64,000 bases of DNA, taken from the NCBI GenBank assembly GCA_016933695.1, contig JAFGAL010000010.1, forward strand, positions 62,001 to 126,000, read 5' to 3'. The DNA comes from Candidatus Zixiibacteriota bacterium. GTDB taxonomy: Bacteria > Zixibacteria > MSB-5A5 > GN15 > PGXB01. This document shows, in pieces, positions 39,256-49,514 of the stretch; position 1 is the first letter of the stretch; every line of letters starts with the position of its first letter. Made by a program: the position numbers and the translations under genes. The notes beneath the pieces were generated by a model that was given only the letters and a program-made list of their open reading frames with translations, made no database searches and was not told where the DNA came from.

Positions 39256-39971
39256 TGGCACTGATTGATACCAAGGATCTGTGGAAAACGTTCGAAATGG
39301 GGGCTGTTCAGGTCCATGCGCTTCAGGGGATTACTCTGGCGATCAATAAGGGCGACTACGTGGCCATCATGGGGCCGTCCGGTTCCGGCAAATCGACGCT
39401 GATGAACCTGATCGGATGTCTGGATACCCCGACCAGCGGGGAGTACTTTTTGAACGATAAACTGGTCAGTACGTTGACCGATGACGAGCTGGCCTATATT
39501 CGCAACAAGGAAATCGGGTTTGTCTTTCAAACATTCAACCTGTTGCCCCGTGCCACTGCCCTGCACAATGTCGAACTGCCGCTGGTGTACAGCGGGAAAT
39601 CCCGGACGGTGCGGGAGGCGATGGCCAAAAAGGCACTGGAACAGGTGGACCTGGCGGATCGCATGACCCATCGTCCCAACGAATTATCCGGCGGACAGCG
39701 ACAGCGGGTGGCGATCGCCCGCGCCCTGGTCAATGAACCGTCGCTGATTCTCGCCGACGAGCCGACCGGTAACCTGGACTCCAAAACCAGTCTGGAAATT
39801 ATGGACTTGCTCGCTCGTCTGCACCAGGACGGCAACACGATTATCGTGGTGACGCACGATCACGAAGTGGCGCAGTTTGCCAACCGGGTGTACCATATTC
39901 GCGACGGCATGATCGAGCGCGAGGAATTTATCGATAAAACGGGCCAAACCACAAGTGAGACGCGGCAATGA
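39255..39971 (+). CDS. ABC transporter ATP-binding protein (MacB/LolD type)
   Basis: Soluble ABC ATPase of 238 residues. Walker [10 protein letters not shown] at about residue 38, the Q-loop [22 protein letters not shown] typical of the LolD/MacB group, signature [15 protein letters not shown], Walker [13 protein letters not shown] and the switch histidine in VVTHDHEVA. The ATG shares one base with the adaptor stop (TGATG), and its own stop overlaps the first permease (ATGA). It is the only ATPase for the three permeases that follow, so it probably energises more than one of them. Confidence 0.95.
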
Positions 39972-41188
39972 TTTTCTGGGAAGTGTTCAAAATGTCGGTG
40001 TCGGCGCTGAACACCAATCGTCTGCGCGGCTTTCTGACTCTGCTGGGTGTCATTATCGGGGTTACCAGTGTGATCACGATCATCTCCGCACTGGAGGGAT
40101 TGTCGCAGTCGATTCGGGCCGAACTCGAAGCGCTGGGACCGTCGACGTTTATCGTGACCAGATTCGGCATTATCCGCAGTGAAGAGGAGTTTCTGGAGGC
40201 GGTCAAGCGAAAACCGCTGAAGTACGAACATATGGAGGCCATTCGCGACGGGTGTGATTTGTGTGAACGGATGGCGGTGGCGTCGCATTTTCGGGTCGAA
40301 GCCAAGCATGACAACCGCAAACTGCGGCGGGTTCTGGTCGAGGGAGCGTCGGCGGGGATTATCGACATTGTTGACACAGAAGTCGAGTATGGCCGTTATT
40401 TCTCGGAAGAAGAGGAACACACCCGCAGTCGGGTGGCCTTTATCGGTTCCAACGTTCAGGAAGAACTCTATCCGGGCGTCGATCCCATCGGTAAATGGAT
40501 CAAATTGAACAATATCAAGTACCGGGTGATCGGTGTGGCCAAAGAAAAAGGATCGACATTCGACGACAATTCCGATCGTTTCGTCTCGATTCCGTACGCG
40601 ACCTTTGTCAAGGATTTCGCCTACCGCGGCATGGGATTGTCCATTTATGTCAAGGCCGCTTCGGTGGAACTGCTTCCGGAGGCGATGGATCAGGCGCGCG
40701 CGGTCCTTCGCGCGTTTCGCCATGTCCCGTACAACAAGGATGACGATTTCGGCATTGTCACGGCGGATGCGGTTATGGCGGTCATCAATGATATCACCAA
40801 AGTCATTCGTTTCGGCTTGATCGGCATTTCCTCCATCGCCCTGGTGGTGGGCGGGATTATTATTATGAATATCATGATGGTGTCGGTAACGGAGCGGACG
40901 CGCGAAATCGGCATTCGCAAGTCGGTCGGCGCCAGACAGCGGGATATCCTTCTGCAGTTTCTGTACGAATCACTGATCCTGTCGCTGGGAGGCGGCCTGA
41001 TCGGCATTGCCATCGGCGTGTTTCTCGGAGACGTGCTGATCGGTTTGATCGAGATGAATATGACGCCGTCGATGTTCGCCATTTCAATCGGCCTGATTAT
41101 CTCGATGGGAACCGGTCTGTTTTTCGGCATCTATCCGGCCATGAAAGCGGCACGGCTTCAGCCGGTAAAAGCCCTGAGTTATGAATAA
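39968..41188 (+). CDS. MacB/FtsX-type ABC permease 1
   Basis: Membrane protein of 406 residues with the MacB layout: an N-terminal helix ([22 protein letters not shown]), a large periplasmic domain of about 230 residues, and three C-terminal helices. Conserved elements are [30 protein letters not shown] and [19 protein letters not shown]. It overlaps the ATPase gene by four bases. It is clearly diverged from permeases 2 and 3, which resemble one another closely. MacB proteins act by mechanotransmission, moving substrates from the periplasm through TolC, or lipoproteins in Lol systems. Confidence 0.92.
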
Positions 41189-41206
41189 AGGAAGTGACGG
41201 GCAGTT

Positions 41207-42454
41207 ATGACATTGATGGAAGTCAAAGAAGGGATGATTCTGGCGATTGGCTCGCTGTCGGCCAATAAATTTCGGTCCGGTTTGACGATTCTCGGTGTGC
41301 TGATCGGGGTTTGGTCGGTTATTGCGATGTCGTCGCTGATCAAGGGTCTTGACGACGCGGTGCAGCAATCGATCAGCTCGCTGGGAAGCAATATTCTGTT
41401 TGTCGATCGCTTTCCGCCGGAAACCCATTATGAAGACCTTACCGAGGAACAGCGTAATTATAAACACATGTCGATGGTGGAAGCGACGGCAATCAAGGAT
41501 AACTGCCCGGCCGTCCTGGCGGTTTCTCCGGAAAACCATTTCTGGGCAAACGGCGGCAATATTATCAAATACCGCGACCGCAAAGCCAGCCAGCCGGCAA
41601 TCTGTGGTATCCTGCCCGACTATCAGAAAGTCCGCGACGTAGCGGTTTCGTCGGGGCGTTTTATCACCGAGGTTGACAATAACGTCCGCGCCAAAGTATG
41701 CGTGATCGGTGCGGATATCAAAGACGCACTGTTTCCCAATGAGGACCCCATCAACAAGGAAATCCGCATCAATAACGAACGGTTCACGGTTATCGGCGTC
41801 CGCGAAAAGAATGAGACGCTGTTCGGTGAGGACGACGGCGAGAACAACAAGGCGCTGATTCCGCTGGAAACGTTTATGAAGTTGTATCCATGGGATATCT
41901 ATTTAACGCTGACGGTCGGCGTGGTTGCACCGGATCAAATGGACATCGCCATTGAACAGATGACGTCGGTTCTGCGGCGAGTGCGTAATGTTCCGTACGA
42001 CAAGGAAAACAACTTCGCCATTTTCGGGCAGGAGAATATCCGGGAGATGGTGGGAGATATAACCAAGTACATCTATATTGCGATGGTCGTGATCTCATCG
42101 GTGGGATTGATGGTCGGTGGTGTCGGCGTGATGAATATCATGCTGGTATCGGTAACCGAACGAACGCGTGAAATCGGTGTGCGCAAGGCGATCGGCGCAC
42201 GGCGCAATAATATTCTCTGGCAATTTCTGGTGGAAGCCATGACACTGTCCGGAACCGGCGGTGTGATCGGCATTGGCACGGGAATCTTGACGGCGCTGTT
42301 GATCGGTATGCTGACGCCTGTGCCGTTCGGGGTGTCGCCGCTCTTTCTTTCTCTGGGATTTCTGGTCGCAATATCGGTCGGTTTAGTGGCGGGCATGTAT
42401 CCCGCCTATCGGGCCGCCAGTGTCGATCCGATTGAATCCCTGCGCTATGAATAA
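41207..42454 (+). CDS. MacB/FtsX-type ABC permease 2
   Basis: Membrane protein of 415 residues with the same layout as permease 1. The N-terminus has NKFRSGLTILGVLIGVWSVIAM and the C-terminal part has [41 protein letters not shown]. The end is MYPAYRAASVDPIESLRYE. It starts 18 bases after permease 1 with an AAAGGAAGTGA ribosome-binding site. It aligns with permease 3 over its full length with long identical blocks, so a tandem duplication is likely. It may pair with permease 1 or 3 as a heterodimer, or form its own transporter with the shared ATPase. Confidence 0.92.
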   Translation: MTLMEVKEGMILAIGSLSANKFRSGLTILGVLIGVWSVIAMSSLIKGLDDAVQQSISSLGSNILFVDRFPPETHYEDLTEEQRNYKHMSMVEATAIKDNCPAVLAVSPENHFWANGGNIIKYRDRKASQPAICGILPDYQKVRDVAVSSGRFITEVDNNVRAKVCVIGADIKDALFPNEDPINKEIRINNERFTVIGVREKNETLFGEDDGENNKALIPLETFMKLYPWDIYLTLTVGVVAPDQMDIAIEQMTSVLRRVRNVPYDKENNFAIFGQENIREMVGDITKYIYIAMVVISSVGLMVGGVGVMNIMLVSVTERTREIGVRKAIGARRNNILWQFLVEAMTLSGTGGVIGIGTGILTALLIGMLTPVPFGVSPLFLSLGFLVAISVGLVAGMYPAYRAASVDPIESLRYE

Positions 42455-42508
42455 CCTTTCATGATTGGCAATATCGTGATCATGTTACCGGCATGAGTCC
42501 ATGAAAGG
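42455..42508 (+). promoter_or_regulatory. Intercistronic hairpin covering the ribosome-binding site of permease 3
   Basis: CCTTTCATG (42455-42463) directly after the permease 2 stop pairs perfectly with CATGAAAGG (42500-42508), which overlaps the AAAGGGG ribosome-binding site (42504-42510). Pairing would lower translation of permease 3 or make it dependent on upstream translation. Confidence 0.5.
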
Positions 42509-42516
42509 GGATATCC

Positions 42517-43758
42517 ATGACATCGGCTGAACTAAAGGACGGGGTATTGCTGGCATTGGGCTCGCTGAATGCCAACAAATTTCGATCCGGTCTGACCATC
42601 CTGGGGGTGTTGATCGGGGTCTGGTCGGTTATTGCGATGACATCGCTGATCAAGGGGCTGGATGACTCGGTGCAGGAGTCGATCAGTGCTTTGGGCAGTA
42701 ATATTCTGTTTGTCAGCAAGTATCCGCCGGATACGGATTATGAAGACCTGACCGAGGAGCAACGTCACCGCAAGCCGATAACGCAGAGGGAGGCGGATGC
42801 GATTCGGGCCAACTGCCCGGCGGTCGCGGCGGTGTCGCCCGAGGATTATTATTTTGCGCCGGGCGGCAACGTGATCAAATACAAAAGCCGCCGCGCCAGC
42901 AATCCGTATGTCGTGGGGGTAATGCCCGATTTTATCCGGGTGCACAAGACGCCGCTGGCGATGGGGCGGTTTATCAGTGCGGTCGACAATCAAAATCGAC
43001 TCAAGGTGTGTGTGATCGGCGATGATATTGTGCACTCGCTGTTTCCCGATGATGATCCTATTGGCAAACAGATTCGAATCAACAATTATCGTTTCCTGGT
43101 GATCGGCGTTTTCGAGAAAAAAGACTCGATGTTCGACGAAAGTGACAACAACAAGGCGTTTATTCCTCTGGAAACATTCATGAAGATGTATCCCTGGGAG
43201 GAGGAGTTATGGCTGGCGGTCAGTGCCCGTTCGGCGGCGGAGATCGACGAGGCGGAAGAACAGATGATTACCGCCCTGCGTCTTCTGCGTAAGGTGCCGT
43301 ATGACGCGGAAAACGATTTCGCGATATTCGGGCAGGAGAATATCCGCGAGCAGGTGGGCAATATTACCAGTTATATTTATATCGCGATGATTGTTATCTC
43401 ATCGGTGGGCCTGATGGTCGGTGGTGTGGGGGTCATGAACATCATGCTGGTGTCGGTGACGGAGCGAACCCGCGAGATCGGGGTGCGCAAGGCGATTGGC
43501 GCCCGTCGCGTCAATATCATCTGGCAATTCTTAATCGAAGCGATGACGCTGTCCGGCACGGGCGGCCTGTTGGGAATCGGTGTCGGGGTGCTGACGGCGG
43601 TCGTTATCGACCTATTGACCCCGCTTCCGTTCGGCATTTCGCTGTTTTACGTGTCGCTGGGATTTATCGTGGCGGTTTCGGTCGGGCTGATTGCAGGGAT
43701 TTACCCGGCCTATCGGGCGGCGGCGGTCGATCCGATCGAATCCCTGCGTTACGAATAA
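42517..43758 (+). CDS. MacB/FtsX-type ABC permease 3
   Basis: Membrane protein of 413 residues and close paralogue of permease 2; NKFRSGLTILGVLIGVWSVIAM and the C-terminal [19 protein letters not shown] block are identical in both. Differences concentrate in the periplasmic domain (for instance PPDTDYEDLTEEQRHRKPI against PPETHYEDLTEEQRNYKHM), which is where substrate or partner contacts are expected. It has an AAAGGGG ribosome-binding site that can be masked by a hairpin. It is the last permease before the GWxTD genes, from which 167 bases without a clear terminator separate it. Confidence 0.92.
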   Translation: MTSAELKDGVLLALGSLNANKFRSGLTILGVLIGVWSVIAMTSLIKGLDDSVQESISALGSNILFVSKYPPDTDYEDLTEEQRHRKPITQREADAIRANCPAVAAVSPEDYYFAPGGNVIKYKSRRASNPYVVGVMPDFIRVHKTPLAMGRFISAVDNQNRLKVCVIGDDIVHSLFPDDDPIGKQIRINNYRFLVIGVFEKKDSMFDESDNNKAFIPLETFMKMYPWEEELWLAVSARSAAEIDEAEEQMITALRLLRKVPYDAENDFAIFGQENIREQVGNITSYIYIAMIVISSVGLMVGGVGVMNIMLVSVTERTREIGVRKAIGARRVNIIWQFLIEAMTLSGTGGLLGIGVGVLTAVVIDLLTPLPFGISLFYVSLGFIVAVSVGLIAGIYPAYRAAAVDPIESLRYE

Positions 43759-43910
43759 TGTTCCGCCGGCATGGTTATACCCTTCGGCCGGTTATCAATA
43801 AGGTCCCGCAAGGCCGATGTCCCCTTCAGATTTTGCGTATTTATCATTGAGGGAATTAGATATTGCCTAAAGTTTAACGTCTATATAGATTAGAGAAGTT
43901 TGACCAAGGC

Positions 43911-43928
43911 AGGAGGGTTATCGTTATC
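43911..43928 (+). promoter_or_regulatory. Strong ribosome-binding site placed before an ATC codon
   Basis: AGGAGGG at 43911-43917 lies eight bases before ATC at 43926-43928. No ATG, GTG or TTG stands at a suitable distance. The following codons encode a complete signal peptide, so the ATC is the best candidate start of the GWxTD gene. Confidence 0.5.
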
Positions 43929-45236
43929 AAACGGTTATTACTCATAATCATCGCCGGATGTCTGGCAATGGCGGGCAGTGTCGGCGCCCAGCAGTTGTAT
44001 CCCATGGCCGATCCCGGGCAGAAGATCGGTTTTCATCTCGATTATGCCTGGTTCGATTCCAATCAAGAGGGGAAAATTCTGCTGGAAGTATACTACAAGG
44101 TGTTCAATAAATATCTTACGTTCGTGCGTGAAGCGGGTGAGTATCAGGCCACGTACGAGGTGACCGTTACCGTGTATACCGACCGTGACGAACAGGTCGA
44201 CGGGAATGTCAAACAGCGGACAATCACCGTTCCGTCATACAGCAAGACGCTTTCGGATGTCGATTTTCGGGTCAGTCAGGTGGATTTCGTGGTTTCGCCC
44301 GGTAAATACAAAATCAAGGGCTCGCTGGTGGACAAAAATGCCGGAACAACAATCAATCAGGAATTGAAAGCGGAATTTGACGCTTTCGACGGGCGTTTCG
44401 CGCAATTGTCGGGAATCGAATTCGTGTATATGGTCGATTCGGCCCAGGAGAACTCGCCGTTCAATAAGGATGACTGGTCGGTGATTCCGTCGGTGATTCG
44501 ATCCTACGGCGGCGATTCGGTGGTGCCGCTGATGTACTACTTCGAGATTTACCAGGGGCGCGACGGACGGGAGAACGTGTTTATCGACACGAGAATTCTC
44601 GATCATAAGTACGATCCAGTTTACTACGACACGCTGACATCGGTGTTCTCGGATCGGACGATCCGGCAGATTCGCCATGTTACGCTCAGCGGAATACCGT
44701 CCGGCGATTACTATCTCGACATCATTTTACGGGGACGGCGCAACAAGGATGTCGATCATGTCAGGACGCCGTTTCGTATCAGCTGGTCGCCGGAGGCGCT
44801 GTATCGCAATGATTTCAAGACCGCGCTGAGGCAGTTGGAATATATTGCCGAGTCGGATGAACTGGATAAGTTAAAAGCCGCGGCCACCCCGGAAGAGCGC
44901 ATGAATGCCTGGAATAATTTCTGGCTGAGGCGCGATCCCACGCCGAATACCGCCCGAAACGAGGCCAAGGAGGACTACTACCGGCGGATTGAGTACACCA
45001 ATCGGTATTTCAGCCTGTTGGGCAAGGAGGGCTGGCGCACCGATCGCGGCCGCATTTATATTCAGTACGGTGAGCCGGATCAGATCGAAGATTTTCCGTT
45101 CGAAGCGGCCAGTCAGTTCGCCTATCAGGTTTGGTATTATTATCAGATCGGCATTCAGAGAAAATTCACGTTTGTGGATCGCTGGGATGACGGTGATTAT
45201 CGTCTGCAGTATCCCTACGATGGTATAATACGATAG
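43926..45236 (+). CDS. GWxTD-domain exported protein 1
   Basis: Exported protein of 436 residues if translation starts at the ATC at 43926, which follows AGGAGGG by eight bases and gives a full signal peptide (IKRLLLIIIAGCLAMAGSVGA). The first ATG, at 43968, would remove most of that signal and has no ribosome-binding site. The body is beta-rich. The C-terminal domain carries the name-giving GWxTD motif (GKEGWRTDRGRIYIQYGEPD), found in Bacteroidota, Acidobacteria and related phyla in proteins of unknown role. A second GWxTD gene follows after 31 bases, and the efflux operon is upstream. Confidence 0.8.
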   Translation: MKRLLLIIIAGCLAMAGSVGAQQLYPMADPGQKIGFHLDYAWFDSNQEGKILLEVYYKVFNKYLTFVREAGEYQATYEVTVTVYTDRDEQVDGNVKQRTITVPSYSKTLSDVDFRVSQVDFVVSPGKYKIKGSLVDKNAGTTINQELKAEFDAFDGRFAQLSGIEFVYMVDSAQENSPFNKDDWSVIPSVIRSYGGDSVVPLMYYFEIYQGRDGRENVFIDTRILDHKYDPVYYDTLTSVFSDRTIRQIRHVTLSGIPSGDYYLDIILRGRRNKDVDHVRTPFRISWSPEALYRNDFKTALRQLEYIAESDELDKLKAAATPEERMNAWNNFWLRRDPTPNTARNEAKEDYYRRIEYTNRYFSLLGKEGWRTDRGRIYIQYGEPDQIEDFPFEAASQFAYQVWYYYQIGIQRKFTFVDRWDDGDYRLQYPYDGIIR

Positions 45237-45267
45237 CATATTGATCTGACAAGGAGAGTATGATACA

Positions 45268-46725
45268 GTGCGTTACGTGATTGCCATATCGTGTGCCGTT
45301 ATTATCATGACCGGGTGTTTGGGGCACAGCGCCGTTGCCGAAAGTCGCCTGACCATCCAGGCCGGGATCTCGGTGTATAACAATCCCGAAACCGGTCCGG
45401 AAACCTATGTCGAGTTTCCGTTTGTCATCGATCGTGCCCAGCTGACATTCCTGCCGACAGAAGGCATCGGAGGGGGAGTTCGCGCCTCGATATACGCGCA
45501 AATTCTTCTGACCGACCAGCAGGGAAGACCGGTTGATTCGGCGGAAACGTATTTTTACACGCAGGCGGGATCGATCATGCAGGCGAAACAGGCCGGAATC
45601 AAAGTCTTCAATAAACTCGTGCTGATGATACCGCCGGGGACGTACAAAGCCGTTTTAACCGTGATCGATGCGGTCAGCAAGCGGGAAGGGGCCTTTTTGT
45701 ACAATCAACTTGAGATCGACGGCCCGGTTGAAAACCGACTGACGTTGAGTACGATTGAAATGGCGTATGATATCGCCGTGGTTTCCGACTCCTCTCCGGT
45801 CAGAATGCCGCATCTGGTGAAAAACGATCGGGAGATTTTGCCGAATCCGATGGCGATTTATTCGGTTGATGATACGGTGATGTTCGTATATACGGAGTTG
45901 TATAATCTCGCGTATGATGACGGGAGTAATGATGAGCAGTTCGCGGTATCGTATTCAGTACGGCGAACCGATGGCGGACTGGCGTATGATTTCGGCACAA
46001 GCGTCAACGTCATGCCGGGCAATTCGGCGGTTCTCTGCCGGAAACTGTCGGTTGCGGGCTGGCAGCCCGGACGGTACGATCTGATTCTAACGGCGACTGA
46101 TTTGGTCTCGCATCAGGCCGACACCAGTTTCAAGCGGTTTGTAATCTTCCCGCGCACCGGGGAATTGCCGGAAGTGGTGTCGTACAGCATGAAAACGCCG
46201 CTGGACTCGGCGAGTATCAAAACCAAAAGTGAGATTATCCGTTTTCTGGTGGAAGCCGACGAATGGGTGCTGTATAACGCCCTGACGGATTCGGGCAAGG
46301 CACGTTTTGTCGAGCAGTTTTTCGTCGACCGCGATCCGTCGCCCGGCACGCCGGAAAATGAATATCTCAACGATGTGCTGGCACGATACGCCTTCGCCAA
46401 CGAGAAGTTCTCAACCCTGCCGGAGGTGCAGGACGGATGGCGAACGGATCGCGGGCGCGTGCTACAGCAATACGGACAATGGGACAACCGCGAGGAACAC
46501 ATCGCCCCCAGCTACGGGCGGCGGTATGAAATCTGGCGGTACGATCGACTGCCGGGTCAGGTCACCAGCGGCATTGTATTCGTGTTTGTCGACGTCGGCG
46601 GCTTCGGCGATTTCAAACTGGCGCATTCAACCGCCAAGGGGGAAGTCTATGATCCCGAATGGAAATACAAACTCTCGGAAGAGGATCCGGACATTCTCCA
46701 ACCGGATGAACCGTTTATTCGATAA
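45268..46725 (+). CDS. GWxTD-domain exported protein 2
   Basis: Exported protein of 485 residues starting at GTG 45268 with AAGGAGAG ten bases upstream; an ATG at 45260 is out of frame. The signal peptide (YVIAISCAVIIMTGCLGHSAVA) contains TGC, so lipoprotein processing is possible but not certain. The domain order matches the upstream paralogue: beta-sandwich modules, then a helical segment with DRDPSPGTPENEYL and the motif QDGWRTDRGRVLQQYGQWD. The resemblance to protein 1 is low except around that motif. It is last in the transcript and is followed by a strong terminator. Confidence 0.85.
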   Translation: MRYVIAISCAVIIMTGCLGHSAVAESRLTIQAGISVYNNPETGPETYVEFPFVIDRAQLTFLPTEGIGGGVRASIYAQILLTDQQGRPVDSAETYFYTQAGSIMQAKQAGIKVFNKLVLMIPPGTYKAVLTVIDAVSKREGAFLYNQLEIDGPVENRLTLSTIEMAYDIAVVSDSSPVRMPHLVKNDREILPNPMAIYSVDDTVMFVYTELYNLAYDDGSNDEQFAVSYSVRRTDGGLAYDFGTSVNVMPGNSAVLCRKLSVAGWQPGRYDLILTATDLVSHQADTSFKRFVIFPRTGELPEVVSYSMKTPLDSASIKTKSEIIRFLVEADEWVLYNALTDSGKARFVEQFFVDRDPSPGTPENEYLNDVLARYAFANEKFSTLPEVQDGWRTDRGRVLQQYGQWDNREEHIAPSYGRRYEIWRYDRLPGQVTSGIVFVFVDVGGFGDFKLAHSTAKGEVYDPEWKYKLSEEDPDILQPDEPFIR

Positions 46726-46789: not shown

Positions 46790-47539
46790 TCAATGCGAAG
46801 CGTCGCCTCGATTGGCAGGGGATGATGTCGATAAACCCACAGTGCGAATGGTGCGTTTGACCGGGATGGAAAAGCGCGTGTGTTTATCATCGTTTACCTC
46901 GATGGTGATCGACTTCTCGAATTCATCATCAAGTGCATCGTCACGCAAGGTGACCTTGCCGCCCTCGGAATCGCCGGCCTTGACCTTCTGGGGAAGATCG
47001 AGTCGGAATATTCCTTCAGGCATATAGACCAGGCTGATTGCAAGGTCCTGATCGGAGACGTTTTCAATGACGAACTTCCTTTCCTTCACTTCCATGTCTC
47101 CGAATTGCGAGATATCGAATTTGTAGGGGGCGATACGAATCGGGTAGGTGGAATCGGGCGCGGTGATGACATCGGCCTTGATTTCCACGTATTTGGCCAG
47201 TTCCCCCTCGTTGGTTTCGATACTCGGCCGTTTCGATTGCTTACCGCTCCGTCTGCCGGTCGAGAAGATGACTTCAAGATCAGTGCTGTCGCCGGAAGCC
47301 AGGACGGTCTTATTCAGCGGTGTTTTGGTACAGCCGCATCCCGGTTTGACATCGGTGATGTTCAGCGTGTCGGTCCCGGTTGAATGGAGCCAAAATGTAC
47401 AGCTGACCTGGGAATTCTGGGGCACCAGGCCGAAGTCGAAAATGGAATTGGGAATGGTCAATGCCGGATCGGACCAGGAGGTATCGACCAGGAAAATCAT
47501 TCCGATAATCACAAGGCACATCCCGTGGATTAAACGCAT
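46790..47539 (-). CDS. DUF1573 exported protein, cysteine form
   Basis: Exported protein of 249 residues with a signal peptide (CLVIIGMIFLVDTSWS). The DUF1573 domain has FDFGLVPQNSQVSCTFWLHSTG, then VKPGCGCTKTPL with cysteines at residues 68 and 70, then VLASGDSTDLEVIFSTGRRSG. A second beta domain follows (FDISQFGDMEVKERKFVIENVSDQDL). It has the same length as the upstream gene at 47711-48460 and aligns with it throughout without gaps. The Cys-Gly-Cys could be a redox or metal site. Ribosome-binding site AAAGGAGA before the ATG. Confidence 0.9.
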   Translation of the reverse strand: MRLIHGMCLVIIGMIFLVDTSWSDPALTIPNSIFDFGLVPQNSQVSCTFWLHSTGTDTLNITDVKPGCGCTKTPLNKTVLASGDSTDLEVIFSTGRRSGKQSKRPSIETNEGELAKYVEIKADVITAPDSTYPIRIAPYKFDISQFGDMEVKERKFVIENVSDQDLAISLVYMPEGIFRLDLPQKVKAGDSEGGKVTLRDDALDDEFEKSITIEVNDDKHTRFSIPVKRTIRTVGLSTSSPANRGDASH

Positions 47540-47655: not shown

Positions 47656-47688
47656 ATAAAAAAAGGCCCGATGGCAATATCGGGCCTT
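47656..47688 (-). terminator. Rho-independent terminator of the putative selenoprotein gene
   Basis: On the minus strand a ten-bp stem AAGGCCCGAT / ATCGGGCCTT with a six-base loop is followed by TTTTTTATTG, 22 bases after the stop codon. Confidence 0.88.
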
Positions 47689-47710: not shown

Positions 47711-48460
47711 TTAATGAGAGCCGGTTGCGCTTTCCGGTTTGGTTGAAGCGGTTTGACCGGGGACGCGGATTGTGCGCTTAACCGGTATGGTGAATCGAGT
47801 GTTGTTGGCATCATTCAGTTCAATCGTGACCGACTTCTCGAATTCTTCTTTCAGCCATTCGTCAAGAATGACAATCTTCCCACCTTCGGATTTTCCGGCC
47901 TTAACCTTCTTGGGCAATTCCAGCTTGAACATGCCGTAGGGCATGTCGACCAGTTTTATGTCCAGATCCTGGTCAGAGACGTTTTCAATTACAAACTTGC
48001 GTTCCGCAACTTCTTTATCGCCGAACTGCGAGACATCGAATTTGTATGGCGAAATCCGAACCGGGAAGGTCGAATCGGGATTGGCGACGACTTCCGATTT
48101 AATCTGCACATACTTGGCCAGTTCGCCTTCGTTGGTCTCAATGCGCGGGCGCTTTGACTGTTTGCCCTGCCGACGTCCCGTCGAGAAAATGATCTCCAAA
48201 TCAGTGCTGTCACCGACAGCAAGCTCCTGTGTTTTAAGCGGAGCTTTTGTGCATCCTCAGCCAGGTTTTACGCTGAGGATTTTTAGATCTTCCGTGCCGG
48301 TGGAATGCAGCCAGAAGGCATGACTGATCTTGGAGTTCTGCGGAACATAGCCGAAATCGAAAATCGATTCCGGGATCGTCAGTTTCGGTTGCGCAAGGGC
48401 TACGCCGGACCAGAGGAAAATGCCGAGCATCAGTAGTAATATGCCCTTGGTATGTTTCAT
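47711..48460 (-). CDS. DUF1573 exported protein with in-frame UGA: putative selenoprotein
   Basis: Exported protein, 249 codons if the UGA at 48257-48259 is read as selenocysteine (residue 68). The signal peptide is GILLLMLGIFLWSGVALA. Before the UGA is FDFGYVPQNSKISHAFWLHSTG and LSVKPG; after it is GCTKAPLKTQELAVGDST and the full DUF1573 remainder to TGSH. The paralogue at 46790-47539 has Cys at exactly residue 68 (KPGCGCTK), the same total length and no gaps. The promoter, GGAGGATAT ribosome-binding site and terminator are intact, and no other stop or frameshift is seen. A hairpin of SECIS geometry follows the UGA. UGA is a normal stop elsewhere in the window. Selenocysteine machinery is not in this window. 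A nonsense mutation or sequencing error remains possible. Confidence 0.75.
48221..48246 (-). promoter_or_regulatory. Candidate bacterial SECIS element
   Basis: On the minus strand AAGCTCC (48246-48240) and GGAGCTT (48227-48221) form a perfect 7-bp stem around a 12-base loop that begins with G. The loop starts 17 bases after the UGA. Known bacterial SECIS elements have a loop of 3-14 bases with a G among its first two, placed 16-37 bases from the UGA, so this fits. The cysteine paralogue has no such stem at the same place. Confidence 0.6.
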
Positions 48461-48785: not shown

Positions 48786-49514
48786 TTATTCCGGACTGGA
48801 TGCGGGACGATAGATTTTCCGCTTGACCGGTATGGAATAATACTGCTGTTCCTCTTTATCGTTGATATACCAGAAAGTGATCGAGTTTTCAAAGCTGGTT
48901 TTCAGGCCGAGATCATTCAGGATGATTTTGACCGGAATGGTGTCATTCGGTTCGATATAGGTTGGAAATTCCAGATGGTAATAAGTGGTGTCGGCCTGGG
49001 CCAGGGTCAGAGGAATGTAGTTGTCCCAGTGGTTGACGATCGACACCTTGAATTCCCGTTGGGTTGAATCACCATATTGCGATGCGATCAGAAAGTACGG
49101 TGTCACATACACGGGAAAGAGGTTTTCGATATTGTCGATAACCCGCGCCTTGATATGCAGGCGAAGGGTACGTATCCCCGTGTTGACCGCATTGGTGTGC
49201 AGTTTGGGGTGCCGATCGCGATGCCCGACAAAGCTCTGGCTGTCGAAGACGACATGAATAAACGTGCTGTCGCCGGGCGGGATGGTGTGTTTCCCGACCG
49301 TCACGGTCAGGCAGTCGGAAAACGTTTCGACTTCGTGGATGATCAGCGGTTCATCGCCGATGGAGCGAATTTTGAAGACGTGCACGAAATGCGCGCGTTG
49401 TGGAACCAGGCCAAACTCAACGGTGTCGTTATCAATCTCGATTTTGGCGTCGGCCATGGCCGCGGTGGCGACAAGAACAAGCATGGCAAGGCAATACATT
49501 GTGGTTTTAATCAC
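48786..49514 (-). CDS. DUF1573-like exported protein without the Cys-x-Cys motif
   Basis: Exported protein of 242 residues with a signal peptide (YCLAMLVLVATAAMA). It shares the paralogues' layout: VEFGLVPQRAHFVHVFKIRSIGDEPLIIHEV, then FSDCLTVTVGKHTIPPGDSTFIHVVFDS and the second module FLIASQYGDSTQREFKVSIVNHWD. The position of the Cys-x-Cys (or UGA-x-Cys) site holds only one cysteine, so the presumed reactive pair is lost. It is the first gene of the minus-strand cluster, with its own promoter at 49560-49587. It may keep a structural role. Confidence 0.82.
   Translation of the reverse strand: MIKTTMYCLAMLVLVATAAMADAKIEIDNDTVEFGLVPQRAHFVHVFKIRSIGDEPLIIHEVETFSDCLTVTVGKHTIPPGDSTFIHVVFDSQSFVGHRDRHPKLHTNAVNTGIRTLRLHIKARVIDNIENLFPVYVTPYFLIASQYGDSTQREFKVSIVNHWDNYIPLTLAQADTTYYHLEFPTYIEPNDTIPVKIILNDLGLKTSFENSITFWYINDKEEQQYYSIPVKRKIYRPASSPE

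What the first reader, a model, noticed from the sequence alone, without database searches (positions are those of the whole stretch)
47711..48460. Putative selenocysteine-containing DUF1573 protein
Directly seen: one in-frame UGA (48257-48259, minus strand) at codon 68 of an otherwise intact 249-codon frame; the tandem paralogue (46790-47539) has the same length and a TGC Cys at codon 68 of KPGCGCTK. The second Cys of the motif is kept, giving a Sec-Gly-Cys arrangement. Promoter, ribosome-binding site and terminator are intact. A 7-bp hairpin with a 12-base, G-starting loop 17 bases after the UGA meets published bacterial SECIS geometry and is absent in the Cys paralogue. DUF1573 is not, to my knowledge, an established selenoprotein family, so a redox role for the CxC site in these exported proteins would follow.
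Basis: partly seen in the sequence, partly recalled or inferred. Interest (0 to 1): 0.92.

Follow-up and report, generated by a model that had tools for sequence, protein, structure and literature searches.

The report
Selenocysteine DUF1573 protein in Zixibacteria
The 'stop' codon in this exported bacterial protein is almost certainly read as selenocysteine, as it is in relatives across a whole order of Zixibacteria; the protein family was already catalogued as a selenoprotein, but the RNA signal that marks the codon looks unusual, with two back-to-back hairpins.

Summary
In detail: frame 47711-48460 (-) has one in-frame UGA at codon 68 (Sec-Gly-Cys), and its tandem paralogue has Cys there. 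The selenoprotein reading is strongly supported. The same MAG (Candidatus Zixiibacteriota) carries selA, selB, tRNA-Sec(UCA) and a UGA-containing selD. In 49 distinct homologues the UGA sits at PG-U-GC. Downstream, RNA structure is under selection in UGA copies and not in 43 Cys copies (synonymous-codon shuffles: mean z -2.9 and -4.3, against 0.1 and -0.5).

(1) DUF1573 with a UGC motif is already a catalogued selenoprotein family (PMC9312934, PMC13188914). The invariant element is a second hairpin directly 3' of it, GCUGUC-GGU-GACAGC, 42 nt after the UGA, outside the published 16-37 nt. I infer a two-part SECIS: hairpin 1 compacts the spacing and hairpin 2 carries the SelB-type GGN loop.

A tree suggests the Cys paralogue is a derived duplicate that lost Sec. 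Protein function is unproven; my best inference is a periplasmic thiol/selenol redox protein with two Ig-like domains.

The parts
47711..48460 (-). Sec-DUF1573 gene (249 aa, apparent signal peptide, two Ig-like domains; Sec68-Gly-Cys70)
   Evidence: Pfam DUF1573 86 bits; AF2 mean pLDDT 85.7
48257..48259 (-). in-frame UGA codon 68, read as selenocysteine
   Evidence: same codon is UGA in 49 distinct homologues
48221..48246 (-). hairpin 1 (AAGCUCC / 12-nt loop / GGAGCUU), inferred spacer part of the SECIS; keeps pairing through compensatory changes
48206..48220 (-). hairpin 2 GCUGUC-GGU-GACAGC, inferred SelB-binding part of the SECIS, 42 nt after the UGA, invariant pairing in 49/49
46790..47539 (-). 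tandem Cys paralogue (KPGCGCTK), sister of the Sec copy; lacks the SECIS hairpins
48786..49514 (-). third DUF1573 paralogue of the tandem array (no CGC motif)
47663..47688 (-). intrinsic terminator of the Sec gene

Best explanation
The gene encodes an exported, two-Ig-domain DUF1573 selenoprotein. The ribosome reads UGA codon 68 as selenocysteine with SelB and tRNA-Sec. The recoding signal is most likely a two-part SECIS: hairpin 1 shortens the path, and hairpin 2, abutting it without a linker, presents a GGU loop to SelB 42 nt downstream of the UGA. In the mature protein Sec68 and Cys70 are the only selenol/thiol pair and would form a selenenyl-sulfide used in periplasmic thiol-disulfide or peroxide chemistry. 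Shown by computation: UGA conservation, Sec machinery, RNA structure under selection only in UGA copies, and Cys duplicates nested among Sec copies. Inferred: actual Sec insertion (0.97), the division of labour between the hairpins (about 0.6), and the redox role (about 0.5). The confidence given is for the selenoprotein claim with a SECIS in this region.
For: Sec machinery in the same MAG: selA 485 bits, selB 326 bits on the same contig as selA, tRNA-Sec 74.8 bits with anticodon UCA, selD with 1 in-frame UGA. UGA at the same PG-U-GC site in 49 distinct homologues, with the frame conserved after it. All 49 code AVGDS as GCT GTC GGN GAC AGY, while 43 Cys copies mostly have APGDS with free codons. 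Protein-preserving codon shuffles: UGA copies z -2.93 (hairpin 1) and -4.31 (hairpin 2), Cys copies 0.12 and -0.49. Helix 2 is 100% paired; helix 1 carries nearly all of the 34 cells with changes on both sides, against 17.8 in shuffles. selA over the cut-off in 117 of 133 genomes of the phylum. DUF1573 'UGC' catalogued as a selenoprotein.
Against: No direct proof of Sec insertion (no protein or 75Se data). Hairpin 2 lies beyond the published UGA-to-loop spacing of 16-37 nt, and some homologues have a near-canonical hairpin 1 (6 of 49), so hairpin 1 could be the SelB site there. Helix 2 barely varies, so its pairing rests on synonymous constraint rather than covariation. The redox role rests only on the Sec-Gly-Cys motif.
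Confidence: 0.93

Rival explanations
1. It is a selenoprotein, but hairpin 1 is the SelB-binding bSECIS and hairpin 2 is an accessory (pausing or stability) element.
For: Hairpin 1 lies at the published distance (17-21 nt) and is under selection. Some members have GGAGAA, GGAAAA or GAAG loops there, and two lipoprotein-type Sec copies (L124, L125) lack hairpin 2 but have GGA or UGGAC loops at 19-20 nt. selD of the same genome has a GUU triloop at 20 nt (sequence, fold).
Against: Only 6 of 49 main-group copies meet the canonical model with hairpin 1, and the window copy does not, with its 12-nt loop. Hairpin 1 is weak or not clearly above shuffles in L096, L058, L103 and L031, whereas hairpin 2 with a GGN loop is in 49 of 49.
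Confidence: 0.28
2. Pseudogene or sequencing error: a stop mutation in a dying duplicate.
For: An intact Cys paralogue lies next door.
Against: The same UGA is in dozens of independently assembled genomes with the downstream frame conserved; the RNA structure is selected only in UGA copies.
Confidence: 0.01
3. UGA is read as another amino acid (reassigned code) or by plain readthrough.
For: None specific.
Against: UGA ends the adjacent Cys paralogue. tRNA-Sec(UCA), selA and selB are present. The site exchanges with Cys.
Confidence: 0.02
4. Selenoprotein whose Sec-Gly-Cys binds a metal (for example Cu or Hg) in the periplasm rather than doing redox catalysis.
For: A CxC-type site on an exported Ig-like scaffold; no thioredoxin-like or other redox-enzyme fold among the best fold matches.
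Against: No obvious further conserved ligand (Cys or other soft ligand) stands next to the site in the alignment; Sec is usually catalytic (general knowledge).
Confidence: 0.3

Closest known systems
DUF1573 (PF07610) selenoprotein, motif UGC, listed in PMC9312934 and PMC13188914 (from the Olavius algarvensis Delta 1 symbiont study, Zhang and Gladyshev 2007, cited there)
   Same: Same domain family and the same Sec-Gly-Cys motif at the CGC site.
   Different: Here a conserved trait of an order of Zixibacteria, in tandem with Cys duplicates. The SECIS of the catalogued member could not be compared; the 2007 paper is not held.
Canonical bacterial SECIS (bSECIS model described in PMC13188914)
   Same: Stem of at least 4 bp with a 3-nt apical loop beginning with G (GGU), within the coding sequence after the UGA.
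   Different: The loop is 42 nt after the UGA instead of 16-37 nt, with another selected hairpin in between.
P. gingivalis protein of unknown function, PDB 2qsv
   Same: Fold match among prokaryotic structures (Foldseek E 5e-10, TMq 0.35).
   Different: Only 15% identity and no sequence-level match; function also unknown.

Membership tests
Selenoprotein (bacterial) | In-frame UGA with conserved reading frame downstream, exchanged with Cys in homologues | tested here: met
Selenoprotein (bacterial) | selA, selB, selC and selD in the genome | tested here: met
Selenoprotein (bacterial) | Sec residue shown in the protein | not testable with these tools
   needs mass spectrometry or 75Se labelling
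DUF1573 (PF07610) | Pfam match above the gathering cut-off | tested here: met
   86.2 bits against 26.1
DUF1573 selenoprotein family | UGC motif | tested here: met
[quoted passage not shown]
Canonical bSECIS | 16-37 nt between UGA and apical loop | tested here: not met
   hairpin 2 is at 42 nt in 49 of 49 copies

The most novel reading that the evidence does not exclude
A two-part bacterial SECIS: a spacer hairpin abutting a GGN-loop hairpin lets SelB act from 42 nt downstream of the UGA, beyond the accepted range, and is fixed across an order of Zixibacteria.
Probability: 0.55. Interest if true: 0.65.

Novelty: new variant of a known kind. Interest (0 to 1): 0.5.

Why it matters
It turns a single catalogue entry (DUF1573, UGC) into a clade-wide, evolutionarily tested selenoprotein in an uncultivated phylum, shows repeated Sec/Cys exchange in tandem copies, and suggests that SECIS searches limited to 16-37 nt spacing miss real elements. 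It also gives a clear experimental handle on what the CGC motif of these DUF1573 proteins does.

Tried and rejected
Rfam scan of the locus found no SECIS or other RNA family above its gathering score. TAG and TAA 'stops' flagged in homologues proved, where I read them, to be ordinary C-terminal stops, not a second recoded codon. RNAalifold on the 49 copies kept hairpin 2 but not hairpin 1, because the register of hairpin 1 shifts; the count on a named structure recovers it. PDB sequence search found nothing; the fold search gave only generic HYDIN/Ig-like folds. The 2007 Olavius paper is not held. A first codon-comparison script matched nothing because of a pattern error and was redone.

Full report
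Observation. The frame at 47711-48460 on the minus strand is intact except for one UGA at codon 68, in the sequence KPG-U-GCTK. The tandem gene at 46790-47539 is of the same length and has Cys there. A third DUF1573 gene lies upstream. The neighbouring Cys gene ends in TGA, so UGA is also a normal stop in this genome.

Machinery. The window lies in a 2.75-Mb MAG, 82% complete. It holds selA (485 bits), selB on the same contig (326 bits), tRNA-Sec with anticodon UCA and selD, which itself has one in-frame UGA. The related records are almost all named Candidatus Zixiibacteriota. selA is over the curated cut-off in 117 of 133 genomes of the phylum.

Conservation. All 60 relatives searched have DUF1573 homologues, and in most the best one has exactly one in-frame TGA. 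Read in frame, the UGA is always the first residue of the UGC site. After removal of duplicates I have 49 distinct UGA copies and 43 Cys copies. The proteins are 52-65% identical to the window's, with many invariant residues after the UGA. This excludes a sequencing error or a dying gene.

RNA signal. The 13-codon distance from the UGA to the AVGDS motif is fixed. All 49 UGA copies write AVGDS as GCT GTC GG[T/C/A] GAC AG[C/T], which folds into GCUGUC-GGN-GACAGC. Cys copies mostly have APGDS with free codon choice, so even the valine appears to serve the hairpin. When synonymous codons are shuffled within each gene, UGA copies fold far better than shuffles in both the hairpin 1 region (mean z -2.93) and the hairpin 2 region (-4.31); Cys copies do not (0.12 and -0.49). 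Hairpin 1 varies with changes on both sides of pairs (34 cells, shuffled mean 17.8, 0 of 500 shuffles as high; UA, AU, GU and GC at columns 24-41), while helix 2 is paired in every sequence. Related sequences inflate such counts, so I rely more on the comparison with Cys copies.

Geometry. Hairpin 2 fits in loop and stem but is 42 nt away. Only 6 of 49 copies have a canonical hairpin in the hairpin 1 region, while all 49 have hairpin 2. In the window the two hairpins abut without a linker. I infer that hairpin 1 shortens the path so that SelB bound at hairpin 2 can reach the ribosome. A covariance model of this region found mainly DUF1573 copies in the relatives, judging by position; weaker hits were not followed. 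A lipoprotein-type group of Sec-DUF1573 genes exists too (L123-L129); L124 and L125 of that group lack hairpin 2 but have a G-containing loop at 19-20 nt.

Evolution. In a tree of 96 proteins the Sec/Cys label needs 12 changes, at least 8 of them forced by well-supported branches. The window Sec and Cys copies are sisters (100/99) in a clade that is otherwise mostly Sec, so the Cys copy is most simply a duplicate that lost Sec. In L018 a Cys copy still keeps GCTGTCGGAGACAGC, a likely relic. The direction depends on rooting and is an inference.

Protein. AlphaFold gives a mostly beta model (mean pLDDT 85.7), which I read with the Pfam and fold matches as two Ig-like domains; the Sec site follows a strand (residues 59-65). 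The best fold matches are HYDIN-type Ig domains of ciliary proteins; among bacterial structures P. gingivalis 2qsv, of unknown function, matches. The N-terminus looks like a signal peptide and the mature protein has only Sec68 and Cys70 as a pair, so a selenenyl-sulfide is possible. A periplasmic redox role is my best guess, and metal binding is the main rival; neither was tested.

Known or new. DUF1573 with motif UGC is listed as a selenoprotein in two reviews, so the family is not new. I found no paper in the held library linking it to Zixibacteria. The apparent two-part SECIS beyond the published spacing is the new part.

Noticed in passing
L015 (own genome C13), UGA at about 2390 on the minus strand: selD of this genome is itself UGA-containing (CAG-U-ASK), followed by GCCAAA-GUU-UUUGGC with its loop 20 nt after the UGA.
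   Followed up: partly
L123-L129: A second, lipoprotein-like subgroup of DUF1573 genes in relatives also has UGA at the same site; L124 and L125 lack hairpin 2.
   Followed up: partly
L018, Cys copy at strand position 1680 (-), genome G010: A Cys copy that keeps the complete SECIS hairpin 2 (GCTGTCGGAGACAGC), apparently a relic of a recent Sec-to-Cys change.
   Followed up: partly
   Followed up: no
window 39968-46725 (+): Three MacB/FtsX-type permease genes followed by two GWxTD-domain proteins next to the DUF1573 array.
   Followed up: no
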